Part shown: piece after piece, positions 1,988 through 41,815 of the stretch | How the letters are laid out: the number at the start of each line of letters is the position of its first letter | Position numbering within the stretch: position 1 is the first letter of the stretch | Origin: Pycnopodia helianthoides | Taxonomy: Eukaryota; Echinodermata; Asteroidea; Forcipulatida; Asteriidae | Direction of reading: 5' to 3' | Assembly (NCBI GenBank): GCA_032158295.1 | Contig: CM063262.1 | Coordinates: forward strand, 9,023,394-9,087,393 | Length of the DNA stretch: 64,000 bases | Program-made: the position numbers and the translations under genes | Notes under the pieces: generated by a model | What the model saw: only the letters and a program-made list of their open reading frames with translations | What the model was told of the DNA's origin: nothing | Database searches by the model: none

Positions 1988-2509
1988 CTAGAGGGCGAAC
2001 GGACTCGGACTCCCCTCGTCTGAGGATGACCACTCCAAGCAAATCCGTCCCAGACTCAACATCATGTAACTCTCTAGGGAATTGAGAAAGTTAAAACTGT
2101 AAATACACGATAACAACAACACCATAAATCTACAAAGAAAGTATGCAATTTATGAATTTTAAATTGCAGGTTGCAAAACACAAGTGTGATGTTGTTGCTT
2201 CTGGTTCGTTGCCCGTATTTTATTAAACGGGCACTCTCGTCATGATCAAAGCAAGCCTGTGGCTCTGTACATCGACTATGAACTCTCCGCCATGGTTTTG
2301 CACGCGCTAACTCCTCAAAAACAAAACCGCTCTTGTCACTGACCTGCAAAATCAGCCTGTGTCGATTTACTACTTCGGTTCCTTCCTCTTCCTCTCTTGG
2401 CGAGTTCCTTAAGGTCTTGCGCTGGGAGGTATTCCGCCTCTTTATCAGCCACGACGAAGGCAGTCATGACGGCAAGAGCCATAAGAGCAAGAAGCAACTT
2501 GGCAGCCAT
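1988..2509 (-). CDS. Gene A: secreted dibasic-processed peptide precursor, single-Cys type
   Basis: Two coding exons are read: exon 2 coding 2509-2344 (acceptor at 2524-2525) and exon 3 2073-1988, giving 83 residues. Residues 1-21 form a hydrophobic signal peptide ending Val-Val-Ala before Asp. An acidic spacer follows, then Lys-Arg at 38-39 and a basic RGRGRNR stretch. Exon 3 starts Glu-Ser-Tyr and has one cysteine in an ICL context, matching gene C over 16 codons before A runs 12 codons longer. Exon 2 is five codons shorter than in the other copies. The donor is GCAG/GTCAGT; intron 2 is only 270 bp. An alternative acceptor two bases on would change the exon 3 frame. I found no AATAAA like those of C-F. 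Function is unknown. Confidence 0.6.
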
Positions 2510-3572
2510 CTTTTAGAGGAATTCTGCACGAATGCAACATTTTGAAACCATGGATTTTGACACATTGTTGTTTTTGTTTTTCTGGTACACTTAGATACAA
2601 AATATATGTGCTCTGTGCGCCACTTGTTAAAAAACTTTCCAGCGCTTGTATGGCGCTTTTCCGGCGCTCAGCAAACAAAATGAAGCTGACGCAATCTTCT
2701 TCAAATGAATCACGTTTTCACTACCAGGGCCCAATTTCATAGAACTGTTTAACGGCCAATTTTCGCCCACTGCACGATTTTCTTTTGTTTATAGTGCTGC
2801 TAACCCAAGCACACGAAAATGCCTGCTATCATCCCAGTGCTTACTGCACGAAAACGAATGATGTAACATTGCAAATACATGGTGACTGCGCAAGATGACC
2901 ACCTTATTTCCTTGCTAACCTGTGAAATACGCTTATGCGTAATAAGCATTTTTTTCTGCCACAGTTAGCACGACAATTTGCTTACCGTTAAGCACCGCTG
3001 TGATATTGGGCCATGGTCAACATAAACTTCATACAGTTGGACACAGCCTCGCTACCATGGGCAGCGCGCCCTGTCGAAACTTCTCGTCACTAACCCCTAT
3101 AGAAGGGAAGCACTGAACAACAATGCTAATTAGGTTACGTACGGTTGTTAACAACTTTCGAACGTTTGTAGGGCAATTGTCGAGTGCTGAGTTCGTGCGT
3201 GTCAACATGAACGTACTTTTTTTATGAAATATACATCAAATGGATCTTGTTTTTACATGCTCACCCTAAATTGCATACACTTAGACATATCAAAAGATCA
3301 ACAAATAATGAGAGGGGACTAGCTGCTCTGTGACTTGATGCGTCTTTTGGTAGCTCAATATATTTGGATATTTCAAAATCACACTTCCAAAGTTACGATC
3401 AAGCAAGGCATTTATACAAACTAATTCAAACATGGAAATATTTCCTACGAATGACATGAAATATTTTCTATGTGTGGAGATAAGTAACACTCGAAAAAAG
3501 GTAAAAGTAAACAATTAAGTTAACAAATACAATTATTGAGATGCAGAACAAAATGAGATTGGTTAAACTTAC

Positions 3573-3740
3573 CGTTCGTAGTTCTCAAAGAAAAAAAAAA
3601 ACTATGAAAATAAAGCGAGGAAACGGATCTGTTTTGAGGGTGTCCTTGTGGATGGTCTTATAAAGGATCCCGGTACCCCATTACCAGCACGAAGAAGCTC
3701 AATTACTAGTCAGTAAAGTGTGTCATTGCCGACACACTGT
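3573..3740 (-). promoter_or_regulatory. Gene A promoter and untranslated exon 1
   Basis: A minus-strand TATA box lies at 3664-3657 (TTTATAAG). Exon 1 should start near 3633 and ends at 3573 before a GTAAGT donor (3572-3567). Upstream at 3718-3737 is an inverted repeat, GTGTGTCATTGCCGACACAC, also seen before the other genes. Intron 1 would be about 1.05 kb. The start site is inferred from TATA spacing. Confidence 0.7.
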
Positions 3741-4120
3741 CATCGACTTTGATTTAATTACTAGAGATGTTTTTAGTCAGGCATAACCATCTTTCATTTA
3801 TTCATACATGCTAAAGACGAGACAATATTGCTTGATTTCTTTCTTTGTTTCGCATGATCCGCATTCAACTGAACTGATTTTCAACCCAGATATATAATAC
3901 GCCCGAACGTATTCAATACTTTAAACAACACGAGACATTCAGAATCATTATTAGTGTTCCAATTTTATTTAATTTGAAACCAGCTCAAAAATTAAATATT
4001 AACTAATTTAAAAATAAAATGTTAAAGCACGACCAAGAAGCGAGCATTTCATGTTGCTAAAAGGGACCGTACGATTTGATATATTTTGTATATCTAGTTC
4101 ATTAACCTTTCCTTTGAAGG

Positions 4121-4831: not shown

Positions 4832-5734
4832 TCAAAAGTATAATGCAGAAACGAATCCAGGGTGGGGCGGGAGCAGGCGCTCTGAGAAGGTGGCTTGGGA
4901 AGGTGCTCGTGCCCGTTCCCCCCCTTTTATGCTCAACAAGCACACCTCCCACCTCAGGTAAAAATCTGGAAAAGTACGAAAATGAAAACTGTAATTATAT
5001 GATGGCAATAATAGTTACTGTAAATTTTGTGAAATTGTCCTTGTGCTAATTAGTGTAAACACGAAACTGTAACGTTTTATCACTTGCGACTTGGGGAAAT
5101 ATGATGATGTCTAATGATAAAATCCAAAGTGCAGTTCGGCAGCCAAAAGCCACTTTTTACCTAAACCTTGCATCGGAGGATGAATAACAGGTTTTGATTG
5201 ATCAATATCAGTAGACCTTGTATAAACAGATGTTTTTCATAATTTTAGACTTGATTTTCAAACCATACTGCTCACTATGTTTCACACGAGTACCATTCAC
5301 AGAGACAACAAAATTACAAGTCACTTTCAATAAACAAACCAAAATATTACTTTGGCCACAGCAAATGAAGTAAACACGTATATGAAAATGAACGATATAG
5401 TCTTTACCAAAATAAAACCCAATACTTGGTTGTTTTGTTGTTTTTCAAGTTAAATCTCCAATAACAATTGGTGATTTTTACAAAAACAGTTTATTAACGA
5501 GAGGGAAGGTATTGGGATCAATTTGTTCCTCTAAAAAACATATTGTCACTGACCTGCAAGTTCAGCCCGTGTAAGAGCGTCAACGTCTTGTTGTCTACCT
5601 CGTTTACTTTCTTTTCCTCTCTTAAAAAAATGCACGAAGTCTTCCGCTGGTGAATACTTCTCCTCCTCATCGGCCATGACGAAGGCAGTCATGACGGCAA
5701 GAGCCATAAGAGCAAGGAGCAGCTTGGCAGCCAT
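4832..5734 (-). CDS. Gene B: secreted dibasic-processed peptide precursor with altered C-terminus
   Basis: Coding exon 2 is 5734-5554 (exon starts 5748) and exon 3 is 4965-4832, giving 104 residues. Residues 1-21 are a signal peptide ending Val-Met-Ala. The acidic spacer DEEEKYSPAEDFVHFF leads to Lys-Arg at 38-39 and a basic KESKRGR segment. Exon 3 begins Asp-Phe-Tyr and shares the Arg-Trp-Glu-Val-Cys-Leu core with gene D, but after Gly-Gly the two part: D stops within one codon, while B continues 27 residues into a dispersed repeat. The break lies at a C-run (plus strand about 4918-4924), where B lacks roughly 1 kb present in D, including the D-type AATAAA. B may therefore have a new tail and a different 3' end. 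Confidence 0.55.
4845..4925. repeat. G-rich repeat head joined to exon 3 of gene B
   Basis: Matches 25,258-25,335 (GGTGGGGCGGGAGCAGG). In block II this repeat is about 850 bp from exon 3 of gene D; here it abuts exon 3, which shows a deletion in block I. Confidence 0.6.
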
Positions 5735-5748
5735 ATTTTAGGGAAATT

Positions 5749-6080
5749 CTGCATGATTGCAAAAAGTTGAAACCACCGTCGTAACAAATCGGAATAATTG
5801 ATTTTCTGGTACAATTGAGAGCAAAGAGCAGCTTGGCAGCCACTTTTTAGTGAAATTCTGCATGATTGCAAAAAAGTTGAAACCAATGTCGTAACCAATC
5901 GGAATAATTGTTTTTCTTGTACAATTGAGAGCAAGGAGCAGCTTGGCAGCCATCTTTCAGTGAATTTCTGCACGATTGCAAAAAGTTAAAACCAGTGTCG
6001 TAACAAATCGGATCAATTGTTTTTCTGGTACAACTGAGAGCAAGGAACAGCTTGGCAGCCATCTTTTAGGGAAATTCTGC
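5749..6080 (-). repeat. Three-unit splice-acceptor repeat in intron 1 of gene B
   Basis: Three extra copies of the intron 1 end plus the first bases of exon 2 lie upstream of the true exon 2. The shared GCAGCTTGGC core sits at 5719 (true exon), 5828, 5938 and 6047 (first base varies), 109-110 bp apart. The unit nearest the exon has GTG where the start codon would be; the two outer units keep ATG. This is the short form of the array in gene D. Confidence 0.85.
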
Positions 6081-6790
6081 ACGATCGCAAAAGGTTGAAA
6101 CCAATGTTATAACAAATCGGAGTAAAGGATTTTGTGGTACAATTAAATACAAAATAATTGTGTGGTTTTACAAAATCTTCAGAAGAAATGCGGGGGGGGG
6201 GGCTATTTTTCAACAACTACAAGTTACACAGAAAGACGAACTTAAATAAATGCTCCTCTGTACTTGAAGGACTACCATACTTACTTAATAAAAAAAGCAA
6301 AATCTATTATTTTAAAACTAATATTGTCATCACTAATCACTAAATACGGATCAATTAATTTCTTCAATTTTATTGGAATATTGCTATTCTGTTTATCGCA
6401 AACTAGACGATATGAACGAGTTTACTCATCACAAACAAATTAATGACATGATCGAGTGTGGAACGGTCGTTTATTACTATTTTGTGTACAGGTGATAATT
6501 TGGTGGGATTTATACAAATATTTGTCGTCTTTTATATTAAATGTCTTTTATTGGTATTGGTGCCAGTGATGATAAACAAAAAATCAAAAAGAATTTCTCG
6601 CAGCCGGTAACGCCTTTCAACATTTAAACAAAATACGTTCAAACTGAACATAATTTTAACAAATGCCTGGAGATAAAACAAATCCTGATAATTTGCTATG
6701 TGGAGAGACCATTTTAATTTGAATTAAATCACGAAAAAATCAAACAAATACAATAAACAAATACAAACATAAGCAATTGAATCAACTTAC

Positions 6791-6950
6791 CGCTTGTGTC
6801 TCTCGGACGAAAAGCTTGGAAAATTCAGCGAGGAAAGCGGATCTGTGAGGAGGGTGTACTAGGGACTGGTCTTATATAGGATCCTGGTATCCCATTATTA
6901 GCACGAATAAGCTTAGTTAAAGGTCAGTAACGTGTGTAACACACTACTGT
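6791..6950 (-). promoter_or_regulatory. Gene B promoter and untranslated exon 1
   Basis: The TATA box is at 6879-6871 (CTATATAAG). Exon 1 runs from about 6848 to 6791, followed by GTAAGT at 6790-6785. A shorter inverted repeat, GTGTGTAACACAC, sits at 6932-6944. Intron 1 is 1,042 bp. Confidence 0.7.
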
Positions 6951-7679
6951 CGACCTTGATTCAATTACCAGGGGTGCTATTAATCAGGCATATCCACATT
7001 TTTTGTATTGATACCTGCTAAAGACATTATGACGAGACCAAACTTTATATTTTTTTCTATGTTTTCGCATGATCCAGTTTCAAATGAACTGATTTCCAAC
7101 CCCGATATAAATACACCCGAACGTATTACTTTAAACAACACGAAGCATTCAAACTCTTAATTCACGAATTAAAAAAGTACAACAACAACAGCAGCTGAAC
7201 AAGTTTTAAGATGTGCCCCTTTCTTCTTATCAAAAGTTGAAACCAATCAGACAGTGCAATCTCAATCAAATATACGATGTCATGTTTTCTTCCACAGGTG
7301 TATACTAATTGTGCCTGCAGGAAGTTTGGATTTCGTTTCTCTTTGTTAGACGAGTGATGTCATATTGACTATAAGCTGGCACCACAAGAGTGAGTGAAGT
7401 AAATACCGATTAGAGGTGGGTGGTATAGTTATTACCACTTGTCAGATTAATTATAAAAAACAAACAATTAAATAGTCTTTACATGGGGCTCACCCTTTCT
7501 TATCAAAAGTCGATACAAATGGTACTAGATGGAATATCTCTATAAAGTGTAAGATTATAGTTATGTTTTGTCAAATCGAGCTTTAAACAATTGGGCATTT
7601 GGAAAACCCTGACTCTGTTAAGAAAACATGTTTCGTTACCGGTACATCATGGTTCAATTATAAAACAAGGGCCAGAACT

Positions 7680-8062
7680 TATAAATGTGGAGCGGGTAAC
7701 GGGTTTCAACATTTAAACAAATTAAATTGGACATGGAAAACAGTTCAACGAATGCCTGGAATTTAAACAGATCGTGACGTAAAATTAATGTGCTTTTGGT
7801 GTGTGGAGATACCATTCTAGCCCATTGTCAGCACGAAGGATCTAGCTTTAATGCAGGTCAGTAAAGTGTGTCATTGCCTACTCGATGTCATCGACTTTGA
7901 TTTCGTTTCCAGGGATTCTGTTAATCAGGCATATCCAACTTTCCTATAAAGATACTTGCTAATGACGAGACAACATTTGGTATGTCTTCCTTTGTTTCGC
8001 ATGATCTGGTTTCTAATGAACTGATTACCAACCACGACATTTTACGCCCGAACGTATTGCCA
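7680..8062 (-). pseudogene. Orphan intron 1 and distal promoter, core deleted
   Basis: Start-of-intron-1 sequence (GTGTGGAGATACCATTCT) is joined directly to distal promoter sequence (CAGCACGAAG..GTCAGTAAAGTGTGTCATTGCC), then the TTTGTTTCGCATGATC block. The TATA box and exon 1 found in the six genes are missing. It is a remnant of a lost gene copy, repeated at 10,560 and 30,680. Confidence 0.6.
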
Positions 8063-8644: not shown

Positions 8645-9715
8645 AATGTAGGTAGGACCTGGGAGTCCAATGATTGAGGACCTGTGAACGTACATTGAGG
8701 GTACACTTTTGACCTAGGAGTCCATTGACGATATTTCTGTGGACCTTGGAGTCAATTGGTAGTTTGGGACCTGGGAGTCAATTGGCGATAATGTTTGACC
8801 TGGGAGTCCATTGATATAAGAACTTGGAGTCCATTGAGGGTATACCTTTGGACCTGGGAGTTTAATTGACGACGAGGCTAGACCTGGAAGTTTATTGATT
8901 TATGAGCTTGGCGTTCACTAAAGGTAAAACTTTGGACCTTGGAGTTCATTGCTAGTTTTGGACCTGGTGCGTACATTGAAGATACAAACTTAGACCTGGG
9001 AGTCACTTGACGATAAGGTTAGACCTTGCAGTCCATTGATTGAAGACCTGGGCGTCCATTGAGGAAGTACTTTTGGACCTGGGAATTCGAAGATAGGTTT
9101 GACCTGGGAGTAGATTGATTTAAGAGCTTGGTGTCCATTGAGGGTATACTTTTGGACCTGGGAGTCCATTGACGATGAGGCTGGACCTGGAAGTTCATTG
9201 ATTTAGGACCTGGGATTTCACTAAGGGTATAGTTTTGGGCCTTGGAGTTCATTAAGGATACAAACTTGGACCTTTGTGTCAATTAACGTTAAGGATGGAC
9301 CTGGCAGGCCATTGATTTAGGACATTGACGTCCATTGAGGGTGCACGTTTGGACCTGGGAGACCATTGCTAGTTTAGGACGTGGAAGTCCATTGCAGATA
9401 CAAACTTGGACCTTTGTGTCAACTAACGATAAGGTTGGACCTGGCAACCTACAGATTGGAACAGTGGCATCCTTTAAAGATATACTTTTGGACATGGGAA
9501 TCCATTGGTAGTTTGGGACATGGTGGTCCATTGAATATACAAACTTGGATTTGGGAATCAAAAGACGATAAGGTTGGACCTGGGAGTCCATTGATTTAGG
9601 ACCTGGGCGTCCTTTGAGGGTGTACGTTTGGACCTGGGAGATCATTGCTAGTTTGGGACATGGGGGTCCATTGAAGATACAAACTTGGACCTGGGGGTCG
9701 ATTGTCAATAAGGTA
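8645..9715. repeat. Minisatellite, 28-30 bp subunits
   Basis: Imperfect tandem units on a GGACCTGGGAGTCCATTGA core alternate with a small set of linkers (GATTTAGG, AGGGTATACTTTT, GTAGTTTG, AGATACAAACTT, CGATAAGGTT). The linkers recur in the same order, giving a higher-order unit of about 140 bp. The long frames across it result from periodicity. Confidence 0.85.
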
Positions 9716-10559: not shown

Positions 10560-10972
10560 ATGGTTCAATTATAAAACAAGGGCCAGAACTTATAAATGTG
10601 GAGCGGGTAACGGGTTTCAACATTTAAACAAACTAAATTGGACATGGAAAACATTTCAACGAATGCCTGGAATTTAAACAGATCGTGACGTAAAATTAAT
10701 GTGCTTTTGGTGTGTGGAGATACCATTCTAGCCCATTGTCAGCACGAAGGATCTAGCTTTAATGCAGGTCAGTAAAGTGTGTCATTGCCTACTCAATGTC
10801 ATCGACTTTGATTTCGTTTCCAGGGATTCTGTTAATCAGGCTTATCCAACTTTCCTATAAAGATACCTGCTAATGACGAGACAACATTTGGTATGTCTTC
10901 CTTTGTTTCGCATGATCTGGTTTCTAATGAACTGATTACCAACCACGACATTTTGCGCCCGAACGTATTGCC
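10560..10972 (-). pseudogene. Second orphan intron 1 and distal promoter
   Basis: Near-identical to 7,680-8,062, with the same loss of TATA box and exon 1. The 7.2-9.7 kb and 10.1-13.0 kb segments are therefore tandem copies of about 2.9 kb. Confidence 0.6.
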
Positions 10973-11569: not shown

Positions 11570-12198
11570 TAGGGAGGACCTGGGAGTCCAATGATTGAGG
11601 ACCTGGACGTAAATGAACGATATCTTTGTGGACCTTGGAGTCAATTGGTAGTTTGGGACCTGGGAGTCAATTGGCGATAAGGTTTGACCTGGGAGTCAAT
11701 TGATATAAGAGCTTGGGGTTCATTGAGGGTATACTTTTGACGATGAGGCTAACGATGAGGCTGGATCTTGAAGTTCATTGATTTATGACCAGGGCGTTCA
11801 CTAAAGGTACAGTTTTTGGACCTTGGAGTTCATTGGTAGTTTGGAACCTGGGACGTACATTGAAGAAAAAACTTAGACCTGGAGATCACTTGACGATAAG
11901 GATGGACCTTGCAGTCCATTGATTGTGGACGTGGGCATCCATTGAGGAAGTACTTTTGGACCTGGGAATTCGAAGATAGGTTTGACCTGGGAGTCCATAG
12001 ATTTAGGAGCTTGGCGTCCATTGAAGGTATACTTTTGGACCTGGGAGTCCATTGACGATGAGGCTGGACCTGGAAGTTCATTGGTTTAGGACCTGGGATT
12101 TCACTAAGGGTATAAATTTGGGCCTTGGAGTTAATTGGTAGTTCGGGACCTGGAAGTCCATTAAAGATACAAACTTGGACCTTTGTGTCAATTAACGT
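11570..12198. repeat. Minisatellite, left part
   Basis: Same 28-30 bp family as 8,645-9,715. It is interrupted at 12,199 by a MITE and resumes at 12,591. Confidence 0.85.
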
Positions 12199-15258: not shown

Positions 15259-15341
15259 TTAAGCATCGTTGCAGACTAGAAATCGGTCCTCGCCAAACTT
15301 TCTCCTGTCGCACACGCAACGCTGGCCAAACTTGTAGCACT
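15259..15341 (-). pseudogene. Gene E': isolated four-cysteine exon 3
   Basis: This 83-nt exon matches exon 3 of genes E and F base for base, with the same CTTCTAG acceptor and TAA stop, and encodes the C-x6-C-x-C-x12-C ending. Flanking 3'UTR and intron 2 match gene E up to about 16,578. There, just after GGTCGGTATGG, the sequence jumps to distal promoter sequence (ACAACACGAGACATTC). Exon 2, intron 1, exon 1 and the TATA box, about 1.8 kb, are missing. A short TTAA-type match at the join suggests a microhomology deletion. The exon has no start codon or promoter of its own. Confidence 0.8.
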
Positions 15342-21379: not shown

Positions 21380-22379
21380 CTAGGACCACGTCAAGCAAAT
21401 CCGTCCTTGACTCAACATCGCATAACTCTCTGAAAAAGTAAGAAAGTGTAAACGGTGAATACACAATAAAAAAAGAGAAAAAAGAAAGATAAAAATACTT
21501 TATGTGACTGACAAATGTTTAATTGTAGGTCGCAAAACACACACACAAGTTTAGGGTTGTTGCTTGTCGTTCGTTACCCGTCTTTTATCAAAGGAGCACT
21601 GTCGTCACGTCACGATCAAAGCAAGTGTGTGGCGCTGTACATGGAATTATGAACTCTCCGCTAGTTAATGCATGCGCACATCCTCCCCTTATCATATATT
21701 TGGTAACTGGGTGAGAGTTCATAATTCCATTTTAATACATCCACAGAGGAAATAACTATAACTGGTAAACTTGCGATTGTAAGAGTAAAGTCTCCTTTGG
21801 AAGATGTGAGCCGAGTGTCCTGTTCGAAAGATCGAGACCACACCAGCTCTTTTCAGAGCCAACACTCCTCCCATGCGTGGTTTTCCTTGAACTTTGCAAA
21901 CTTACACGGTCGGCCATTTTGTGGAGTCAAAAGTTTGACTCCATAAAATGGCCGACTGTGTTAGTTCACTATGTAAAAGGAAAACCACGCACTTTCGAGG
22001 CTTATTTGTGTGGATCATTGTTTCTACTTTTAAAACATCTTTCTAACCATATGCATTTTATAACAAACGGTTTACAAACGCTTTTTATAGACCAACTCGG
22101 CCGATTGAAGGCAACGTGTACCTTTAAAACATCACTTTGAACTAGAGGTTCGTATGGGGATTAATGATGCTCTTCTAAAAGACCCTCTCGTCACTGACCT
22201 AGCAGATCAGCTTGTGTCGCATATCCCATCCTTGGTTTTCCACCCTGGTTCCTTCCTCTTCCCCTCTTGACAAATTCCATGAGGTGTTGTGCTGGGAGGT
22301 ATTCCTCCTCCTCATCGGCCATGACGAAGGCAGTCATGACGGCAAGAGCCATAAGAGCAAGGAGCAACTTGGCAGCCAT
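21380..22379 (-). CDS. Gene C: secreted dibasic-processed peptide precursor, single-Cys type
   Basis: Coding exon 2 is 22379-22199 (exon starts 22394) and exon 3 is 21429-21380, giving 76 residues. The signal peptide ends Val-Met-Ala at 21, the spacer is DEEEEYLPAQ-like, and Lys-Arg at 38-39 precedes a basic RGRGRNQGGKPR segment. Exon 3 encodes Glu-Ser-Tyr then an ICLTWS ending with one cysteine, and shares 13 of 16 residues with gene A. A longer frame across exon 3 is reached by an acceptor two bases later. I prefer the shorter one because all copies then start exon 3 with Glu/Asp-x-Tyr. Intron 2 is 769 bp and the donor is TAG/GTCAGT. Confidence 0.6.
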
Positions 22380-23999
22380 CTTTTAGGGGAAATTCTGCAC
22401 AAATGCAACATTTTGAAACCATTGTTGTAAAACAACTTTGTAATTAGTTTTTTTTCTGATAGAAACACCATGAATTTGAGGTTCTAGAGGTGCAGCAGTG
22501 AGCTTTTTTGTTAAACAGTGAAGCCTCTGCAAGACTCGCAAGTATTCTTACATTTTTGAGATCCTTCGTGTTTTGACCTTATCCACCCTCGACTAGAGGT
22601 CAAAAGGAAATTGTTCATTTGCCAACCATGTTAGACGCTCGTACAAATCTGTGCGTTGTCATTGTTTCATGAACGATTTGCATCCAAGATGGCGGTTGGA
22701 TGACGTTAATGCATAACTAGTCTCGCTACCACGGGCAGCGTGCCAAGTCAACACCTCTCGTGTCACTAACCCATGGAAGGGATGTACTTAAAAACACCGC
22801 CGATTGGTTACAAAAAGTGACTGCTCGTCGCGCACGCTTGGTAAAAATGGTTTAGCATAAATATATAATATAATGGTCTATATCTGTGCTTCCAAGCAGT
22901 TCTATGGCATATTTCGGCACTTAGTACGCGCCTGTCAAAATGCACGTATCATGTTTTCACATGGTCAATCTCAACTCAACCTCTTTCCCAGATATGGACA
23001 TTCTCGCTGCGCCATTTTTCCCCCCCCCCGAATTCCTTTTTCGATTATAACCACTGTAAGTGTAAATTAGAATTATCAAAATATATTATATATTTTAATT
23101 GGTCCAGTGGTCTATCCATTCTGTGTTAGAGACTACACGGAGTTCGTGAAGTCATTGAGCGACTGGTCCCCTGTCACTATTTGTTTTTCTTGTAATTATG
23201 TCGAATTGTATGCAGTTGAGGGTGACCATGTAAAAATGTTATTCCAGTATTTTACTGGAAGGGAAGCACTGAAAAACAATTCTGATTGGCTATACACTTC
23301 AAATGAATCATGTTTTTAGATGATCACTCTAAACTTCATACACTAAGGCCAACCACACTACTAATTAAAATATCAAATTAATTTAAAATCAAGTGCGATA
23401 GAAAACGAAATACTTTACCACACCAAGACCGCTTATGTCCGAATTAGTTAATTGTTTCTTCGGTAGATCATGCAATCATTATGGGCCATCGAAGTGCCTT
23501 AGCAGTAACTGGTGCTCCGAATATAACAACATATAAATTGACTATACAAGCTGAATGCCAGCGAAATGTGGCTTTGCGTTAACTGGTACTCCGTAAAAAA
23601 AATGTTTGGATCATATAGAACGCATGCCAGTGGTATGCGTCCTGTTTTCCCCAATCTCACAACTACCTCATAGTCAAGACTTCTTCAGACATTCTGAAAC
23701 ACTTCAGCCAGAAGCAACAGGTTTCATCATGGAAGACATAGTTAAAATTGAAATTACACCAATGATTCATGAAGTAGCAAACCTTGTAGCGGGTAACGCG
23801 TTTCAACATTTCAACAAAGTAAATTATGAATGGAAATAATTTCAACGAATGCCAGGAGTTGAAACAGATCGTGACGTGAAATATTCTTTGGTGTTCTGGA
23901 GGGAAACAAAATTTACATTAAAATAAGATAAAAGTGCAAACATAAATCAACAAATACAAACATTAAGATGTGGAACAAAATGATATTGGTTAAACTTAC

Positions 24000-24165
24000 C
24001 GTTGGTGGTTCTCAAACAAAAAGCTCGGAAAATTCAGCGAGAAAAGCGGATCGGTGTGGAAGGTGTCCTTGTGGTTGGTCTTATAAAGGATCCCGGTACC
24101 CCATTACCAGCACGAAGAAGCTAAATTACTAGTCAGTAAAGTGTGTCCTTGCCCACACACTGTCA
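24000..24165 (-). promoter_or_regulatory. Gene C promoter and untranslated exon 1
   Basis: TATA box at 24087-24080 (TTTATAAG); exon 1 from about 24,056 to 24,000; GTAAGT donor at 23999-23994. The inverted repeat GTGTGTCCTTGCCCACACAC is at 24141-24160. Intron 1 is 1,605 bp and includes a broken copy of the 9,790-type frame. Confidence 0.7.
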
Positions 24166-24524
24166 TCGACTTTGATTTAATCACTAGAGATGCTATTATT
24201 CGGGCGTAACCATCTTTCCTTTATGAAAAAAGACGAGACAACATTGCTTGATTTCTTTCTTTGTTTCGCATGATCCGCATTCAACTGAACTGATTTCCAA
24301 CCCCGATATAATACGCCCGAACGTATTCAATACTTTAAACAACACGAGACATTCAGAATCATTAATAGTGTGCCAATTTAATTTAATTTGAAACCAGCTC
24401 AAAAATTCAATATTAACTAATTAAAAAATTAAATGTTAAAGCATGACCAAGAAGCGAGCATTTCATGTTGCTAAAAGCGACCGTACGATTTGATATATTT
24501 TGTATATCTAGTTCATTAACCTTT

Positions 24525-26175: not shown

Positions 26176-26997
26176 TCAATTCCCCCCTTTTATGCTCAAC
26201 AAGCACACCTCCCACCTCTGGTAAAAATCTGGAAAAGTACGAAAATGAAAACTGTAATTATATGATGGCAATAATAGTTACTGTAAATTTTGTGAAATTG
26301 TCCTTGTGCTAATTAGTGTAAACACGAAACTGTAACGTTTTATCACTTGCGACTTGGGGAAATATGATGATGTCTAATGATAAAATCCAAAGTGCAGTTC
26401 GGCAGCCGAAAGCCACTTTTTACCTAAACCTTGCATCGGAGGATGAATAACAGGTTTTGATTGATCAATATCAGTAGACCTTGTATAAACAGATGTTTTT
26501 CATAATTTTAGACTTGATTTTCAAACCATACTGCTCACTATGTTTCACACGAGTACCATTCACAGAGACAACAAAATTACAAGTCACTTTCAATAAACAA
26601 ACCAAAATATTACTTTGGCCACAGCAAATGAAGTAAACACGTATATGAAAATGAACGATATAGTCTTTACCAAAATAAAACCCAATACTTGGTTGTTTTT
26701 ATGTCTTTCAAGTTAAATCTCCAATAACAATTGGTGATTTTTACAAAAACAGTTTATTAACGAGAGGGAAGGTATTGGGATCAATTTGTTCCTCTAAAAA
26801 ACATATTGTCACTGACCTGCAAGTTCAGCCCGTGTAAGAGCGTCAATGTCTTGTTGTCTACCTCGTTTACTTTCTTTTCCTCTCTTAAAAAAATGCACGA
26901 AGTCTTCCGCTGGTGAATACTTCTCCTCCTCATCAGCCGTAACGAAGGCAGTCATGACGGCAAGAGCCATAAGAGCAAGGAGCAGCTTGGCAGCCAT
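26176..26997 (-). CDS. Gene D: secreted dibasic-processed peptide precursor, single-Cys type
   Basis: Coding exon 2 is 26997-26817 (exon starts 27011) and exon 3 is 26228-26176, giving 77 residues. It is the block II partner of gene B: exon 2 differs by only two residues (Met20 to Thr, Val51 to Ile), so the signal peptide here ends Val-Thr-Ala. The acidic spacer, Lys-Arg at 38-39 and KESKRGR are kept. Exon 3 runs Asp-Phe-Tyr-Gln-Arg-Trp-Glu-Val-Cys-Leu and stops after Gly-Gly-Asn. This is probably the ancestral ending, from which B departs by deletion. Intron 2 is 588 bp, as in B; intron 1 is 2,801 bp because of the 110-bp array. Confidence 0.65.
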
Positions 26998-27011
26998 CTT
27001 TTAGGGAAAAT

Positions 27012-29085
27012 CTGCATGATTGCAAAAAGTTGAAACCACCGTCGTAACAAATCGGAATAATTGATTTTCTGGTACAATTGAGAGCAAAGAGCAGCTTGGC
27101 AGCCACTTTTTAGTGAAATTCTGCATGATTGCAAAAAAGTTGAAACCAATGTCGTAACCAATCGGAATAATTGTTTTTCTGGTACAATTGAGAGCAAAGA
27201 GCAGCTTGGCAGCCACTTTTTAGTGAAATTCTGCATGATTGCAAAAAAGTTGAAACCAATGTCGTAACCAATCGGAATAATTGTTTTTCTGGTACAATTG
27301 AGAGCAAAGAGCAGCTTGGCAGCCACTATTTAGTGAAATTATGCATGATTGCAAAAAAGTTGAAACCAATGTCGTAACCAATCGGAATAATTGTTTTTCT
27401 GGTACAATTGAGAGCAAAGAGCAGCTTGGCAGCCACTTTTTAGTGAAATTCTGCATGATTGCAAAAAAGTTGAAACCAATGTCGTAACCAATCGGAATAA
27501 TTGTTTTTCTGGTACAATTGAGAGCAAAGAGCAGCTTGGCAGCCACTTTTTAGTGAAAATCTGCATGATTGAAAAAAATTTGAAACCAATGTCGTAACCA
27601 ATCGGAATAATTGTTTTTCTGGTACAATTGAGAGCAAAGAGCAGCTTGGCAGCCACTTTTTAGTGAAATTCTGCATGATTGCAAAAAAGTTGAAACCAAT
27701 GTCGTAACCAATCGGAATAATTGTTTTTCTGGTACAATTGAGAGCAAGGAGCAGCTTGGCAGCCACTTTTTAGTAAAATTCTGCATGATTGCAAAAAAGT
27801 TGAAACCAATGTCGTAACCAATCGGAATAATTGTTTTTCTGGTACAATTGAGAGCAAAGAGCAGCTTGGCAGCCACTTTTTAGTGAAATTCTGCATGATT
27901 GCAAAAAAGTTGAAACCAATGTCATAACCAATCGGAATAATTGTTTTTCTGGTACAATTGAGAGCAAAGAGCAGCTTGGCAGCCACTATTTAGTGAAATT
28001 ATGCATGATTGCAAAAAAGTTGAAACCAATGTCGTAACCAATCGGAATAATTGTTTTTCTGGTACAATTGAGAGCAAAGAGCAGCTTGGCAGCCACTTTT
28101 TAGTGAAATTCTGCATGATTGCAAAAAAGTTGAAACCAATGTCGTAACCAATCGGAATAATTGTTTTTCTGGTACAATTGAGAGCAAAGAGCAGCTTGGC
28201 AGCCACTATTTAGTGAAATTATGCATGATTGCAAAAAAGTTGAAACCAATGTCGTAACCAATCGGAATAATTGTTTTTCTGGTACAATTGAGAGCAAAGA
28301 GCAGCTTGGCAGCCACTTTTTAGTGAAATTCTGCATGATTGCAAAAAAGTTGAAACCAATGTCGTAACCAATCGGAATAATTGTTTTTCTGGTACAATTG
28401 AGAGCAAAGAGCAGCTTGGCAGCCACTTTTTAGTGAAATTCTGCATGATTGCAAAAAAGTTGAAACCAATGTCGTAACCAATCGGAATAATTGTTTTTCT
28501 GGTACAATTGAGAGCAAAGAGCAGCTTGGCAGCCACTTTTTAGTGAAATTCTGCATGATTGCAAAAAAGTTGAAACCAATGACGTAACCAATCGGAATAA
28601 TTGTTTTTCTGTTACAATTGAGAGCAAAGAGCAGCTTGGCAGCCACTTTTTAGTGAAATTCTGCATGATTGCAAAAAAGTTGAAACCAATGTCGTAACCA
28701 ATCGGAATAATTGTTTTTCTGGTACAATTGAGAGCAAAGAGCAGCTTGGCAGCCACTTTTTAGTGAAATTCTGCATGATTGCAAAAAAGTTGAAACCAAT
28801 GTCGTAACCAATCGGAATAATTGTTTTTCTGGTACAATTGAGAGCAAAGAGCAGCTTGGCAGCCACTTTTTAGTGAAATTCTGCATGATTGCAAAAAAGT
28901 TGAAACCAATGTCGTAACCAATCGGAATAATTGTTTTTCTGGTACAATTAAGAGCAAGGAGCAGCTTGGCATCCATCTTTCAGTGAAATTCTGCACGATT
29001 GCAAAAAGTTAAAAACCAGTGTCGTAACCAATCGGAATAATTGTTTTTCTGGTACAACTGAGAGCAAGGAACAGCTTGGCAGCCA
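27012..29085 (-). repeat. Array of 19 splice-acceptor/exon-start units, 110 bp each
   Basis: The core GCAGCTTGGC recurs at 27091 and every 110 bp to 29071 (first base varies in the last), 19 copies beyond the true exon 2 at 26981. In gene sense each unit has a pyrimidine-rich tract, ATCATGCAG/AATTTC as acceptor, then the first bases of exon 2. Seventeen units carry GTG at the start-codon position; the two outermost keep ATG. Variant units (CACTATTTAG) occur at 27311, 27971 and 28191. Because 110 is not a multiple of three, roughly 108-residue frames recur in all frames; they are artefacts, not proteins. Confidence 0.9.
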
Positions 29086-29812
29086 TCTTTTAGGGAAATT
29101 CTGCACGATCGCAAAATGTTGAAACCAATGTTATAACGAATCGGAGTAAAGGATTTTGTGGTACAATTAAATACAAAATAATTGTGTGGTTTTACAAAAT
29201 CTTCAGAAGAAATGCGGGGGGGGGCTATTTTTCAACAACTACAAGTTACACAGAAAGACGAACTTAAATAAATGCTCCTCTGTACTTGAAGGACTACCAT
29301 ACTTACTTAATAAAAAAAGCAAAATCTATTATTTTAAAACTAATATTGTCATTACTAATCACTAAATACGGATCAATTAATTTCTTCAATTTTATTGGAA
29401 TATTGCTATTCTGTTTATCGCAAACTAGACGATATGAACGAGTTTACTCATCAAAAACCGATTATTGGCATGATCGAGTATAGGACGGTCGTTTATTACT
29501 ATTCCGTGTACAGGTGATAATTTGGTGGGATTCATACAAATATTTGTCGTCTTTTATATTAAATGTCTTTTATTGATATTGGTGCCAGTGATGATAAACA
29601 AAAAATCAAAAAGAATTCCTCGCAGCCGGTAACGCCTTTCAACATTTAAACAAAATACGTTCAAACTGAACATAATTTTAACAAATGCCTGAAGATAAAA
29701 CAAATCCTGATAATTTGCTATGTGGAGAGACCATTTTAATTTGAATTAAATCACGAAAAAAGCAAACAAATACAATAAACAAATACAAACATAAGCAATT
29801 GAATCAACTTAC

Positions 29813-29970
29813 CGCTTGTGTCTCTCGGACGAAAAGCTTGGAAAATTCAGCGAGGAAAGCGGATCTGTGAGGAGAGTGTACTAGGGACTGGTCTTATATA
29901 GGATCCTGGTACCCCATTATTAGCACGAATAAGCTTAGTTAAAGGTCAGTAACGTGTGTCACACACCACC
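29813..29970 (-). promoter_or_regulatory. Gene D promoter and untranslated exon 1
   Basis: TATA box at 29901-29893 (CTATATAAG); exon 1 from about 29,870 to 29,813; GTAAGT donor at 29812-29807. The short inverted repeat GTGTGTCACACAC is at 29954-29966, as in gene B. Confidence 0.7.
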
Positions 29971-30679
29971 GTCGACCTTGATTCAATTACCAGGGGTGCT
30001 ACTAATCAGGCATATCCACATTTTCTGTATTGATACCTGCTAAAGACATTATGACGAGACCAAACTTTATATTTTTTTCTATGTTTTCGCATGATCCAGT
30101 TTCAAATGAACCGATTTCCAACCCCGATATAAATACACCCGAACGTATTACTTTAAACAACACGAAGCATTCAAACTCTTAATTCACGAATTAAAAAAGT
30201 ACAACAACAACAGCAGCTGAACAAGTTTTAAGATGTGCCCCTTTCTTCTTATCAAAAGTTGAAACCAATCAGACAGTGCAATCTCAATCAAATATACGAT
30301 GTCATGTTTTCTTCCACAGGTGTATACTAATTGTGCCTGCAGGAAGTTTGGATTTCGTTTCTCTTTGTTAGACGAGTGATGTCATATTGACTATAAGCTG
30401 GCACCACAAGAGTGAGTGAAGTAAATACCGATTAGAGGTGGGTGGTATAGTTATTACCACTTGTCAGATTAATTTAAAAAAACAATAATTAAATAGTCTT
30501 TACATGGGCTCACCCTTTCTTATCAAAAGTTGATACAAATGGTACTAGATGGAATATCTCTATAAAGTGTAAGATTATAGTTATGTTTTGTCAAATCGAG
30601 CTTTAAACAATTGGGCATTTGGAAAACCCTGACTCTGTTAAGAAAACATGTTTCGTTACCGGTACATCATGGTTCAATT

Positions 30680-32128: not shown

Positions 32129-32440
32129 TAAAGGAACATTACAGAATTGGTAAGAAAAAAATTGTAAAATATACTTTTTGATCACAGATTTACATGAAAC
32201 TTACACGGTCTAATGATGATGATAGTAGAAAACATCCCTTGAAATATTTCTGTCTGAAATGCCATATTTGATGAGAAATGAACAAACTAATTTTCCGATT
32301 GGAGTTTATCGCTCAGTGAGCGTTTTATTCATTTGTTGAATCTATATGATTTCATACAAATGTGTAATCGGTTTTTCACTATTTTCTCGTGACCCAGCAA
32401 CTGTTTGTTAGCAAAAACCAATTCTGTAATGTTCCTTTAA
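32129..32440. mobile_element. MITE-like element with internal deletion
   Basis: Same insertion site and ends as 12,199-12,590, but about 80 bp shorter: sequence between GTGACCCAG and CAACTG is missing. Confidence 0.85.
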
Positions 32441-32870
32441 GGATGGACCTGTCAGGCCATTGATTTCGGACCTTGGCGTCCATTGAGGGTGCACGTTTGG
32501 ACCCGGGAGACCATTGCTAGTTTAGGTCGTGGAAGTCCATTGAAGATACAAACTTGGACCTTTGTGTCAACTAACGATAATGTTGGACCTGGCAATCTAC
32601 ATATTGGGACAGTGGCATCCTTTAAAGATATACTTTTGGACATGGGAGTCCATTGGTAGTTTGGGACATGGTGGTCCATTGAATATACAAACTTGGATTT
32701 GGGAATCAAATGACGATAAGGTTGGACCTGGGAGTCCATTGATTTAGGACCCGGGCTTCCTTTGAGGGTGTACGTTTGGACCTGGGAGACCATTGCTAGT
32801 TTGGGACCTGGGGGTCCATTGAAGATACAAACTTGGACCTGGGGGTCAATTGACAATAAGGTAGTTTTCT
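32441..32870. repeat. Minisatellite, right part, block II
   Basis: Counterpart of 12,591-13,012. Confidence 0.85.
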
Positions 32871-35100: not shown

Positions 35101-36638
35101 TTAAGCATCGTTGCAGACTAGAAATCGGTCCTCGCCAAACTTTCTCCTGTCGCACACGCAACGCTGGCCAAACTTGTAGCACTCTAGAAGAGTAAAAAAT
35201 GTGAAAACTGTAAGTGCATGACAACAACAGCATAAACATGAACAAGAAACAAATACAACACAACACAGACCGCGGTTGTTGAATTGTTGCTGGTCTTTAT
35301 TTAAGGGGCACTGTCGTCATGGGATTATGAACTCTCCGTCTGCCAATTACTGTTAGCCCACGCCCTCTCCTGTACCATAGGCCTATCAATCGACAGCTCG
35401 CGCGCGAAGTAACTGGGTGAGAGTTCAAACTCCGTTTTCATCCACAGTTTGCTCATGACTATAGTGCCTCTTTAAGTAATATTTTAATCTTTATTTATTA
35501 ATAATTTGATAACAGCAAGATGTTTTAGGAATACTCGCTGGTTCAAATGATATATATATATGCATCTAAGATCGGCATACTGCTTGTAAAGTTTAATAAA
35601 TCAAGCACATCTTTAGGTCTTCACTTGAAATAAAACATTATTCTCGAACCGAATGATGAAAACTAATTCAGCAACAAACAAACAAAACCAATCTATAAAA
35701 CATATTGGTACATAGGGACTGTTGAAGGGGGAGAGGGGCTGATATGCCCAACATTTGACAGGGGTAAACATCAGTTGGTCCCTGCTCCCTGGGTCGCATG
35801 CTTTTTGACAGAACACAATTAAAAAATGTATTAAGAGTAGATTCAACAGACGGTAAAAAACAAAAAAAACAAAACATTGCAGTTGTTTGTTAAAATAACC
35901 AGAAATAATATAGTTTGACCCTAGTGTTCACAAACTTCACAACAGCCCTGTTCTACCAAAAACATAATTGCATCTAACTTGTAGTAAACGTCGAAACTCT
36001 ATTAAAAAAAAACCTCAAAACCAGATATTATTTTGAATGAAGCAACTGGAATATTTACGTATACAAAATTGAGTGATTAAAAATTTACCTTTACAAAAAA
36101 GAAAAAAGGACACGAAAACACTACATCTGTTGTTATTCAAGTTATTTTCTTCCATAACTATATATTTTTTGTATTATTTTTGTTTTCTGTTCAATATTTG
36201 ATTGAGAGCTAGATGAAGTAACTATAACTAGTAAACTTGCGGATACAGAGTGTATTGACCGAAACGTCGATACCACACCAGCTCTCTCAGAGCCAAAACT
36301 CTTCCAAAATGAGATTTTATCAAAGGTTGTAACTACATCATTACTAGTTAATTTCCTTTCTATTTTCAGCACCATTCAATGCTTCAGAAACTACTTTGAA
36401 CTAGAGGGTCGGTATGGGGATTAATATGCTTCTTTAAAAGACTCTCTTGTCACTGACCTGTAAGATCATCTTTTGTCAATGGTCCCATTCTTCCCTTTCC
36501 ACCTCGGTTTCTTCCCTTTCCTCTCTTGACGAGTTCCATGAGGTCTTCCGCTGGGAAGTATTCTTCCTCCTCATCGGCCATGACGAAGGCGGTCATGACG
36601 GCAAGAGCCATAAAAGCAAGGAGCAGCTTGGCAGCCAT
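35101..36638 (-). CDS. Gene E: secreted four-cysteine peptide precursor
   Basis: Coding exon 2 is 36638-36458 (exon starts 36652) and exon 3 is 35183-35101, giving 87 residues. The parts are a signal peptide 1-21 ending Val-Met-Ala, acidic spacer DEEEEYFPAEDLMELV, Lys-Arg at 38-39, a Gly/Lys/Arg-rich segment at 40-51, then an exon 3 ending with cysteines spaced C-x6-C-x-C-x12-C and a KFG motif used twice. Cleavage after Lys-Arg would give a basic 48-residue product with room for two disulfides. Intron 2 is 1,274 bp with donor ACAG/GTCAGT and acceptor CTTCTAG. An upstream in-frame ATG at 36,680 lies in intron 1 and is not used. The product is identical to that of F. It could be an antimicrobial, venom-like or signalling peptide; I cannot assign a family. 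Confidence 0.75.
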
Positions 36639-37358
36639 CTTGTAGGGGAATTCTGCACGAATGCACAATTTTGAAACCATGGTTTATAACACATTGTTGC
36701 TACTGTTTTTATTGTACAATTAGATACAAAATAAACGTGTGGTTCTCCAGAGTTGCAGCAGTAGGATGTTTTTGTTAAACAGTGAAGCCACTGCAAGACT
36801 CACACGCAGTCAAACATTAATTAGAGGAACATTTGTATATTGACCTTATTCAACATATACTAGAAGTCAAAAGGAGATCGCTCATTTGTCCACCATGTTT
36901 GCCGCACGTCCAATTCGTGCGTTTTAATTGTTTCATCAACAATTTGCATTCAAGATGGCGGTTGGATGACGTCAATGCAAAAGCAGCATCGCTACCAAGG
37001 GTAGCGCACCGTATCAATACCACTTGATACCACTAATCTTTACAACTGGATCAACTAATTTATAGATTTTGTTCGGGATTTTTATGCGTTTTACTGCAAA
37101 CTAGGCGATGTAAACGAGTTTACTCTTTGAAAAAAATTATTAACATTGTGATCTAGTTTTTGACGGTTATTTGTGCATCTCCACCCCCCCAAAAAAAAAA
37201 TATTGCTATTTTGAATTGTGTATAATGTTGGTCGAATGTCCCGTATTAATGTGCTTGTCTGCATTCAGAAACTTGTTTTGATATCGGTTACAGTCTTTAA
37301 ACAAAATGAAAGTACAGAAAAAAATAAAATATCGTGCAACGAAATTCCGTTTAAATTT

Positions 37359-37592: not shown

Positions 37593-37883
37593 TCTGAAGC
37601 ACCTCTACCGAAAGCAAACGGCTTCATCGTGGAAGACTTAGTCAAAAGTGAAATCACAACATTGGTTTATGAAGCGAGTAAAACGTTTCACCATTTTAAA
37701 TAAAATACTTAAAAAAATGAAATAATTTCAACGAATGCCTGGAGTTGAAACAGATCTTGATAATTTGCTTTTGGTGTATTGAGATACCATTCTAAGTCGA
37801 AGTCAAATAGTGTAATAAATAAAAAAGATAAAGAAACAATTAAATACAAAGAATAGAAACGACGTGGAAGTGGTTCAACTTAC

Positions 37884-38045
37884 CCTTGGTGATTCACGAA
37901 GAAAAAGCTATGAAAATTCAACTGGAATCCGGTTGTGTGAGGAGGGTGTACTTGGGACTGGTCTTATATAGGATCCGGTATCCCATTACCAGCACGAAGA
38001 ATCTAGATTATAGGTCAGTAAAGTGTGTCCTTGCCCACACACTGT
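37884..38045 (-). promoter_or_regulatory. Gene E promoter and untranslated exon 1
   Basis: TATA box at 37981-37973 (CTATATAAG); exon 1 from about 37,950 to 37,884; GTAAGT donor at 37883-37878. The inverted repeat GTGTGTCCTTGCCCACACAC is at 38023-38042. The divergent promoter of gene F is about 1.2 kb away. Confidence 0.75.
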
Positions 38046-38326
38046 CATCGACTTTGATTTAATTACCAGGGATGCTATTATTCAGGCATATCCACCTTTC
38101 TGTTATTGATACCTGCTAAATGACGAGGCGAAACTTTTGATTTCTTTCTTTGTTTCGCGTGATCCAGTTTCAAATGAACTGATTTCCAACCCCGATGTAA
38201 TTAATACGTGGCACGTATTACTTGAAACAACACGGGGCATTCATATTCATTATTGGTGTTCCAATTAAATCAATTTGAAACCAGTTCAAAAATTAAGCAT
38301 GACCAAGAAGCGAGCATTTCAAATTG

Positions 38327-38835: not shown

Positions 38836-39134
38836 CAAATTGAAATGCTCGCTTCCTGGTCATACTTTAGGATATTATTTTACATTTAATTGTTGAACTG
38901 GTTTCAAATTAGATTAAATTGGAGCACCAATAATGAATATGAACGCCCCGAGTTGTTTAAAGTGATACGTCCGGGCGTATTTGTGTCGTGGTTGGAAATC
39001 AGTTCATTCGAAACTGGATCACGCGAAACAAAGAAAGAAATCAAAAGTTTCGCCTCGTCATTTATCAGGTATCAATAACAGAAAGGTGGATATGCCTGAA
39101 TAAAAGCATCCTTGACAATTAAATCAAAGTCGAT

Positions 39135-39298
39135 GACAGTGTGTGGGCAAGGACACACTTTAATGACCTTTAACTAAGCTTCTTCGTGCTGGTAATGGGG
39201 TACCGGGATCCTATATAAGACCAGTCCCAAGTACACCCTCCTCACAAATCCACTTTCCCGCTGAATTTTCATAGCTTTTTGTTCGAGAACCACCAAGG
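39135..39298 (+). promoter_or_regulatory. Gene F promoter and untranslated exon 1
   Basis: The inverted repeat GTGTGTGGGCAAGGACACAC at 39139-39158 is followed by CTTCGTGCTGGTAATGGGGT, TATA box CTATATAAG at 39211-39219, and exon 1 from about 39,242 to 39,298 before GTAAGT. No upstream ATG is seen in exon 1. Order and spacing match the other five genes. Confidence 0.8.
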
Positions 39299-40247
39299 GT
39301 AAGTTGAACCACTTCCACGTCGTTTCTATTCTTTGTAGTTAATTGTTTCTTTATATTTTTACTTGTTATCTTATTTGAATTCGACTTAGAATGGTATTGC
39401 CACACATCAAATTATCATGATCTGTTTCAATAACAGGCATTCGCTGAAATTATTATTTTTTTGAAAGTATTTCATTTATTTGTTGAAACGCTTTAATCGC
39501 TTCATAAACTAATCGTGGTATTTCAATTTTGACTAAGTCTTCCACGTTGACGCCGTTCGCTTTCGGTAGAGGTGCTTCAGAATGCCTGAAGAAGCCGTAA
39601 CTTTGAGGCAATTGTGAGATTTATGCAAAATGATCACGTATTTTGCTGGTATACGCTCTATGTGATCCAAACATTAAATGTTAAAGTAGTACCAGTTAAT
39701 GCAAAGCCACATTTCGCTGGCAACCGGATTATATAGTCAATATAAGCATTTCTTGTTGTATTCGGAGTACCAGTCAGTGCTAAGGCACGTCGATGGCCCG
39801 ATATGGTATCGCTTGAACATTTAAGCGCGATTCCATTGCGCTATATACCATAAAAGGGTTACCAACGAAAACGGCGCGCTGCCCTTGGTAGCGACTCTGC
39901 TTTTGCAATGACGTCATCCAACCGCCATCTTTGATGTAAACCGTTGATGAAACAATTAATACGTACATATTTGTACGTGTGGCAAACATGGTGGGCCAAT
40001 GAGCGATCTCCTTTTGACTTCTAGTTGATGTTGAATAATTAATGTCAATATACAAATGTTCCCCTAATTATTGCTTGACTGCGTTTGAGTCTTGCAGTGG
40101 CTTCACTGTTTAACAAAAAACATCCTACTGCTGCAACTCTGTAGAACCACCCATTTAATTTGCATCTAATTGTACCAGAAAAAAAACCTTTATGTGTTAT
40201 AATCCATGGTTTTACAATTTTCCATTCGTGCAGAATTCCCCTACAAG

Positions 40248-41815
40248 ATGGCTGCCAAGCTGCTCCTTGCTTTTATGGCTCTTGCCGTCATGACTGCCTT
40301 CGTCATGGCCGATGAGGAGGAGGAATACTTCCCAGCGGAAGACCTCATGGAACTCGTCAAGAGAGGAAAGGGAAGGAACCGAGGTGGAAAAGGAAGGATG
40401 GGACCATTGACAAAAGATGATCTTACAGGTCAGTGACAAGAGAGTCTTTTAGAGGAGCATATTAATTGCCATACCGACCCTCTAGTTCAAAGTGATGTCT
40501 GAAGCATTGAATGGTGCTGAAAATAGAGAGTAATTTAACCAGTAATTCTGTAGGTACAACATTTTGATAAAACTCTTTTTGAAAGAGTTGTTTGCCCTGA
40601 GACAGCTGGTGTGGTATCGACGTTTCGATCAGTACACTCTGTACCCGCAGGTTTACTAGTTATAGTTACCTCATCTAGCTCTCAATCAACTATCAGTCCC
40701 TTCCCTGCCTCTTCAATTGAAGTATAGTTATTGAAAATTTAACTTGATTAACGAACAAAGTTAATGTTTAATGTTTTTTTTTTTTTTTTTTTTTCGGTAA
40801 AACTTCAATCATTCAATTTATTATACGTAATTATTTCAGTTGCTTCAATAAAAATTGGATCTGGTTTTCAGGTTTTTTTTTATTTTATAGAGTTCTCGAA
40901 GTTTATTAAAATTTATATGCAATTTTGTCTTTGGTAGCACAGGTTTAGTAAAGTTCTGTTTTGTGAAGTTTTTAATTAGTGAGCACTAGGGTGCAACTAT
41001 GTTTCTGATTAATATAACAAACAACTGCAAAAACAATTTAATTCTGGGTAAACCGTCTGTTGAAGTACTTTAAACACATTTTACCCAGGGAGCAGGGACC
41101 AACTTATGTTTTACCCCTGTCAAATGTTGGGCATATCAGCCCCTCTCCCCCTTCAACAGTCCCCATGTACCAGTATGTTTTATAGATTGGTTGTGTTTGT
41201 TTGTTGCTGAATTAGTTTCCATCATTTGGTTCAAGAAAAATGTTTTATTTCAAAAGAAGACCTAAAGATTTGCTTGATTTATTAAAACTTTACAAACAAT
41301 GTGCTGGTCTTAGATGCATATAGATATAATTTGGACCAGCGAGTATTCCTGATTTGTATTGAAAAATGTTGCTGTTATCAAATTGTTAATACATAAAATT
41401 AAACATTTTACTTATTGGGCACTATAGTTGTGATCAAAGCAGGCCTGTGGGTGTAAATGGAGTTATGAACTCTCACCCAGTTACTTCGCGCACGAGCTGT
41501 CAATTGATATGGTACAGGAGAGGGCTCGGGCAAACAGTAATTGGCGGAGAGTTCCTTTATTCATGTACAGAGCCAAAGGCTTGCTTTGACGACAGAGCCC
41601 TTTAATAAAGACCGGCAACAATTCAACAACCGCGGTCTGTGTTGTGTTGTATTTGTTTCTTTGTCATGTTTATGCTGTTGATGGTATTACTATTATCATG
41701 TATTTACAGTTTTCACTTTCTTACTTTTCTAGAGTGCTACAAGTTTGGCCAGCGTTGCGTGTGCGACAGGAGAAAGTTTGGCGAGGACCGATTTCTAGTC
41801 TGCAACGATGCTTAA
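40248..41815 (+). CDS. Gene F: secreted four-cysteine peptide precursor
   Basis: Coding exon 2 is 40248-40428 (exon starts 40234, after CATTCGTGCAG) and exon 3 is 41733-41815, giving 87 residues identical to gene E. I count five base differences from E in coding exon 2, all synonymous, and none in the 83 bases of exon 3. Just past the stop, 3 of 29 bases differ, and intron 2 has indels. This contrast supports both the join and the four-cysteine frame. Domains: signal peptide 1-21, acidic spacer, Lys-Arg at 38-39, Gly/Arg/Lys segment, C-x6-C-x-C-x12-C. It is the only plus-strand member. Intron 2 is 1,304 bp. Function is not assigned; a secreted effector or defence peptide is an inference. Confidence 0.8.

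What the first reader, a model, noticed from the sequence alone, without database searches (positions are those of the whole stretch)
1988..41815. A six-gene cluster of small secreted, dibasic-processed peptide precursors
Six genes share promoter, untranslated exon 1, signal peptide, acidic spacer and Lys-Arg at residues 38-39, over about 40 kb. The part after Lys-Arg differs between members. A conserved leader with a diversified mature region is typical of secreted effector families such as antimicrobial or venom peptides. I recognise no named family. Starfish cysteine-rich antimicrobial peptides are the first comparison I would make, from memory only.
Basis: partly seen in the sequence, partly recalled or inferred. 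Interest (0 to 1): 0.85.

Follow-up and report, generated by a model that had tools for sequence, protein, structure and literature searches.

The report
Starfish antimicrobial-type peptide gene cluster
A starfish chromosome stretch carries six copies of a gene for small secreted defence-type peptides; two make a peptide of an already described starfish family (CrAMP), while four have lost the cysteine pattern that defines it, so the cluster is mostly a new member of a known kind with an odd, diverged set of copies.

Summary
Six genes share a TATA promoter with a non-coding exon 1, a signal peptide, an acidic spacer and Lys-Arg at residues 38-39; 1988 and 41815 are the stop codons of genes 1 and 6. 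It is a starfish cysteine-rich antimicrobial peptide (CrAMP) locus, perhaps also that of the published CHUPA peptides. Splicing, expression and antimicrobial action were not testable. Whether genes 1-4 decay or diversify is undecided.

The parts
3520..3760 (-). gene 1 promoter with TATA box and non-coding exon 1
2344..2523 (-). gene 1 exon 2: signal peptide, acidic spacer, Lys-Arg (ATG at 2509); 15-base in-frame gap against the others
   Evidence: 5' end read by eye
1988..2073 (-). gene 1 exon 3 (coding part to stop), one cysteine
6743..7001 (-). gene 2 promoter and exon 1
5554..5748 (-). gene 2 exon 2 (ATG at 5734)
   Evidence: 5' end read by eye
4832..4965 (-). gene 2 exon 3, one cysteine; tail and 3' end differ from gene 4 beyond a break near 4911-4922
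5709..6144 (-). 109-base tandem array, 4 copies, each holding the intron-1 end, 3' splice site and start of exon 2 of gene 2
23949..24215 (-). gene 3 promoter and exon 1
22199..22394 (-). gene 3 exon 2 (ATG at 22379)
   Evidence: 5' end read by eye
21380..21429 (-). gene 3 exon 3, one cysteine
29765..30023 (-). gene 4 promoter and exon 1
26817..27011 (-). gene 4 exon 2 (ATG at 26997)
   Evidence: 5' end read by eye
26176..26228 (-). gene 4 exon 3, one cysteine
26972..29168 (-). 110-base tandem array, 20 copies, of the 3' splice site and start of exon 2 of gene 4
37858..38100 (-). gene 5 promoter and exon 1
36458..36652 (-). gene 5 exon 2 (ATG at 36638)
   Evidence: 5' end read by eye
35101..35183 (-). 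gene 5 exon 3: four-cysteine CrAMP exon
39081..39324 (+). gene 6 promoter and exon 1, head to head with gene 5
40234..40428 (+). gene 6 exon 2 (ATG at 40248)
   Evidence: 5' end read by eye
41733..41815 (+). gene 6 exon 3: four-cysteine CrAMP exon
15259..15341 (-). orphan exon 3 (remnant of a seventh gene), same four-cysteine protein as genes 5 and 6; likeness to gene 5 runs through its intron 2 up to about 16587 and stops short of exon 2
7818..7943 (-). upstream-promoter fragment without the TATA box; like copies at 10729-10854 and 30811-30936

Best explanation
This is a cluster of starfish CrAMP (cysteine-rich antimicrobial peptide) genes in a starfish close to Asterias. Each gene makes a precursor: a signal peptide into the secretory path, an acidic spacer that offsets the basic peptide, and a Lys-Arg where a proprotein convertase would cut. 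Genes 5 and 6 release the same 48-residue basic peptide (net +5) with four cysteines (C-x6-C-x-C-x12-C), most likely two disulfides bracing a beta-hairpin, acting as a defence or injury-response peptide in body fluid. Genes 1-4 are paralogues with the same promoter and leader whose third exon lacks the four-cysteine module; I think it a little more likely that they are relaxed or decaying copies than working variants. Shown: DNA layout, homology, codon pattern. Inferred: splicing, cleavage, disulfides, function. The confidence given is for a secreted CrAMP-family locus with genes 5/6 as members; for a truly antimicrobial role I would say about 0.6.
For: Homologues: A. amurensis P0001, 84% over 100%; A. 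rubens P0006, labelled CrAMP-2 by one source, 61% over 98%, profile E 1.7e-26; Patiria miniata P0012, 78 residues, same leader, Lys-Arg-Gly and four cysteines with CVCDRR, E 2.2e-9. 6 of the 13 hits have the four-cysteine tail. Genes 5/6: 5 synonymous and 0 amino-acid changes in 87 codons; in their 3.3-kb alignment, 89% identical outside gaps, the longest identical run, 99 bases, covers exon 3. AATAAAGTTACTTT follows genes 5, 6 and the orphan, with one-base variants after genes 3 and 4. Charge: spacer -8, mature +5 in genes 5/6. P0001, P0005 and P0006 list the same longest contig length, 15,767,093, so the family is probably linked in Asterias too.
Against: No transcript or peptide data. CrAMP-2 is a database label. 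The AlphaFold model of P0001 was poor (mean pLDDT 54.9; three strands in the cysteine part). Genes 1-4 keep an open exon 2, Lys-Arg, promoter, and in genes 3 and 4 the poly(A) context, which plain decay would not favour. The one paper I read on the similar CHUPA peptides speaks of injury response, not of killing bacteria.
Confidence: 0.85

Rival explanations
1. Injury or wound-response signalling peptides (CHUPA type) rather than microbe-killing peptides: same precursor, but the released peptide acts on starfish cells.
For: CHUPA peptides of A. rubens are described as signal peptide, acidic region, convertase site and a 35-48-residue four-cysteine peptide, raised after injury. Genes 5/6 match that description, with 48 residues and four cysteines.
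Against: The nearest named relative is labelled an antimicrobial peptide. CHUPA sequences stand in a figure that is not held, so identity was not tested. The two readings may be one family.
Confidence: 0.3
2. Genes 1-4 are functional variants: single-cysteine peptides that pair by one disulfide into dimers or act linearly, under diversifying selection.
For: Open exon 2 in all four. In the 8 pairs other than 5/6 and 2/4, dN is 0-0.07 in codons 1-25 but 0.24-0.71 in codons 40-60, and there equals or exceeds dS in 4 of the 8. Genes 1 and 3 share the tail pattern ESY-MLS-GRICL-WS.
Against: Net charge after Lys-Arg is 0, +2, +3 and +1 in genes 1 to 4, against +5 in genes 5/6. dN near dS is also what no constraint gives, and the codons are few. 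Gene 2's tail is read from sequence joined at a break. None of the 10 hits, whose profile included these tails, carries one.
Confidence: 0.3
3. Genes 1-4 are dying copies; only 5 and 6 work.
For: The four-cysteine exon is not there; gene 2 lacks the 3' end that gene 4 has; the doubled AG-AG at the acceptor of genes 1 and 3 leaves the reading frame uncertain.
Against: No stop or frameshift in four exon-2 copies; promoters and TATA kept; poly(A) context kept in genes 3 and 4.
Confidence: 0.55
4. A neuropeptide or hormone precursor family, as dibasic cleavage would suggest.
For: Signal peptide and Lys-Arg site.
Against: One copy of the peptide per precursor, no amidation signal at the end of genes 5/6, homology to CrAMP.
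Confidence: 0.05

Closest known systems
CrAMP-2 of Asterias rubens (P0006, LOC117301867) and the CrAMP family named after PpCrAMP of Patiria pectinifera (Kim et al. 2018, not held, known here only from passages of reviews)
   Same: leader, acidic spacer, VKRGKGRNRG, GPLTKDD, four cysteines with CVCD(K/R)R
   Different: genes 5/6 are 61% identical to it; genes 1-4 lack the cysteines
CHUPA peptides of A. rubens (PMC11891777)
   Same: architecture, length class and four cysteines as described in the text
   Different: sequences not compared; not in the text held
KARTESH/KASH peptides of A. rubens (PMC11891777, PDB 8V2M)
   Same: same precursor plan, four cysteines
   Different: mature 28-30 residues against 48; sequence searches of the PDB did not find them
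Strongylocins and centrocins of sea urchins (PMC11767717, passages)
   Same: echinoderm defence peptides
   Different: strongylocins have six cysteines; centrocins are two-chain peptides, not tested here

Membership tests
starfish CrAMP (genes 5, 6) | sequence homology to a named CrAMP over the full length | tested here: met
   61% over 98% to CrAMP-2, profile E 1.7e-26
starfish CrAMP (genes 5, 6) | signal peptide, acidic spacer, Lys-Arg | tested here: met
   signal peptide judged from sequence, no dedicated predictor
starfish CrAMP (genes 5, 6) | four cysteines in the released peptide | tested here: met
starfish CrAMP (genes 1-4) | four cysteines in the released peptide | tested here: not met
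   one cysteine each; the exon profile scores three places at E about 2e-16, the next best 0.25, none at exon 3 of genes 1-4
starfish CrAMP | beta-hairpin structure | tested here: inconclusive
   model of P0001 at mean pLDDT 54.9
starfish CrAMP | antibacterial activity | not testable with these tools
   none
CHUPA (genes 5, 6) | 35-48-residue mature peptide with four cysteines after an acidic region and dibasic site | tested here: met
   48 residues, description
CHUPA | sequence identity to CHUPA-1 to -3 | not tested
   sequences only in a figure not held
CHUPA | raised in coelomic fluid after injury | not testable with these tools
   none
KARTESH (genes 5, 6) | mature peptide of 28-30 residues | tested here: not met
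   48 residues
strongylocin | six-cysteine pattern | tested here: not met
   four or one, description

The most novel reading that the evidence does not exclude
The orphan four-cysteine exon at 15259-15341 lies downstream, on the same strand, of genes 3 and 4, with an intact acceptor and a matching splice phase. Genes 3 or 4 could therefore skip their own one-cysteine exon and splice to it, so that one locus mixes different leaders and N-terminal parts with a shared cysteine core or with one-cysteine tails.
Probability: 0.1. Interest if true: 0.65.

Novelty: new member of a known kind. Interest (0 to 1): 0.38.

Why it matters
It gives a genomic setting for a starfish defence-peptide family: a duplicated, rearranging cluster in which two identical four-cysteine copies are kept by selection or gene conversion beside four copies without the core. 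That makes it testable whether starfish diversify such peptides at this locus or simply lose copies.

Tried and rejected
Venom: nothing found supports it. Pfam had no match for 3 window products at E 10; of 4 homologues, 3 had one match each far below cut-off and 1 had none. PDB by sequence gave two hits for the gene 5/6 product (E 1.4 and 4.5) and two for the profile (a designed protein at E 0.0081 over the leader, and E 1.6); I take none as a relative. A fold search was not run because the model was poor. A bare cysteine-pattern scan was not above chance (4 hits; 20 shuffles, mean 2.05, maximum 6), so the profile result is what counts. In 18.2-21 kb and 43.5-64 kb I saw only open frames of at most 185 residues and recognised no gene by eye; they were not scanned against Pfam. 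The species was not settled. Listings showed no paper on a CrAMP gene cluster; the library is open-licence only and lacks the key papers.

Full report
Observation. The six copies are real. Exon 2 of gene 1 finds the other five with E from 6e-43 to 1e-65, and genes 2 and 4 match at 98%. The promoter and exon 1 of gene 1 find those of the other five at E 6e-34 or better; a TATA box and the donor GGTAAGTT stand in all six.

What it is. A search with the gene 5/6 product found four homologues, the best named as an uncharacterised protein of Asterias amurensis, 84% identical over the whole length. A profile of nine sequences gave 10 hits, among them P0006, which one source names CrAMP-2 of Asterias rubens. 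A second profile gave 13 hits, down to Patiria miniata P0012 (E 2.2e-9) and P0013 (E 3.9e-6). Six of those 13 have the four-cysteine tail. Of the other seven, six (P0004, P0007-P0011) continue with Gly-Lys, Arg-Lys or Ser-Lys after the exon-2 part, as reading through a donor N|GTAAG would give. That is an inference from protein, but it supports an intron at this place. PpCrAMP is described in reviews as a cysteine-rich antimicrobial peptide of Patiria pectinifera predicted to form a beta-hairpin (passages) and as the prototype of a family in echinoderms (passage).

Also close are the CHUPA peptides of A. rubens. The paper, read in parts 1-4 of 5, describes them as signal peptide, acidic region, convertase site and 35-48 residues with four cysteines, raised after injury. 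Genes 5/6 fit that text (48 residues, four cysteines). I could not compare sequences.

Selection. Between genes 5 and 6, 5 codons of 87 differ and all 5 changes are synonymous. In their 3.3-kb alignment (89% identical outside gaps) the longest identical run is 99 bases and covers exon 3. Purifying selection or gene conversion would explain this. The orphan's identical exon says little, since gene 5 and the orphan are 98-99% alike around it anyway.

Genes 1-4. They keep leader and Lys-Arg but have one cysteine each. A profile of the four-cysteine exon scores three places in the window at E about 2e-16, at genes 5, 6 and the orphan; the next best is 0.25, and none lies at exon 3 of genes 1-4. 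Whether exon 3 has changed faster than its flanks is mixed: between genes 3 and 6 the flanks align at 75-82% and exon 3 only in short pieces with long gaps, but the flanks hold long gaps too; between genes 1 and 6 exon 3 is at 62-66% against 78-82% in the flanks; between genes 4 and 6 exon 3 (80%) is not below the flanks (70-75%). Along exon 2, amino-acid change is low in codons 1-25 and high in codons 40-60. Synonymous change in codons 1-25 is also low in several pairs (0 to 0.27 over the 10 pairs), which hints that this end is homogenised. All this fits both diversification and loss of constraint; few codons are involved. Genes 3 and 4 keep the poly(A) context of genes 5 and 6 with small changes; genes 1 and 2 do not.

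History. Self-comparison shows a direct duplication of about 13 kb, the copies about 20 kb apart (3.45-16.6 kb against 23.9-36.4 kb, 92-96% in the five main pieces), and an inverted pair centred near 38.6 kb holding genes 5 and 6 head to head (80-83% with gaps counted). Against the right copy, the left copy lacks about 0.8 kb after gene 2 exon 3, so the gene 2 tail runs into other sequence, and the counterpart of gene 5 is reduced to an orphan exon 3 with its intron.

Limits. No RNA, no peptide data, no own-genome search (not answered in nine attempts), a poor structure model. Membership of genes 5/6 in the CrAMP family rests on sequence and is strong; function rests on the family name and is inferred. 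That the animal is close to Asterias follows from the 84% match alone.

Noticed in passing
26972-29168 and 5709-6144: A 109-110-base minisatellite (20 copies at gene 4, 4 at gene 2) copies the 3' splice site and start codon region of exon 2; inner copies mostly read GTG where the gene has ATG. It could offer many competing splice sites.
   Followed up: partly
8700-9700, 11600-13000, 17600-18200, 31650-32860, 43400-44300: A satellite-like repeat family around TTGGACCTGGGAGTCCATTG, with periods near 79 and 140, is spread through the cluster.
   Followed up: no
44670-45239: Two tandem 255-base copies, 97% alike, each with a tRNA match (Rfam 46.7 and 56 bits, minus strand); a third, weak one (31.5 bits) at 60975-61034.
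   Followed up: no
16721-17112, 12200-12499, 32130-32429, 56111-56505: A dispersed repeat, 89-96% alike; one copy lies about 130 bases from the point where likeness of the orphan gene to gene 5 ends.
   Followed up: no
44282-44563 and 61814-62338: A 140-base tandem repeat of 2 copies, 97% alike, and a 107-base one of 5 copies.
   Followed up: no
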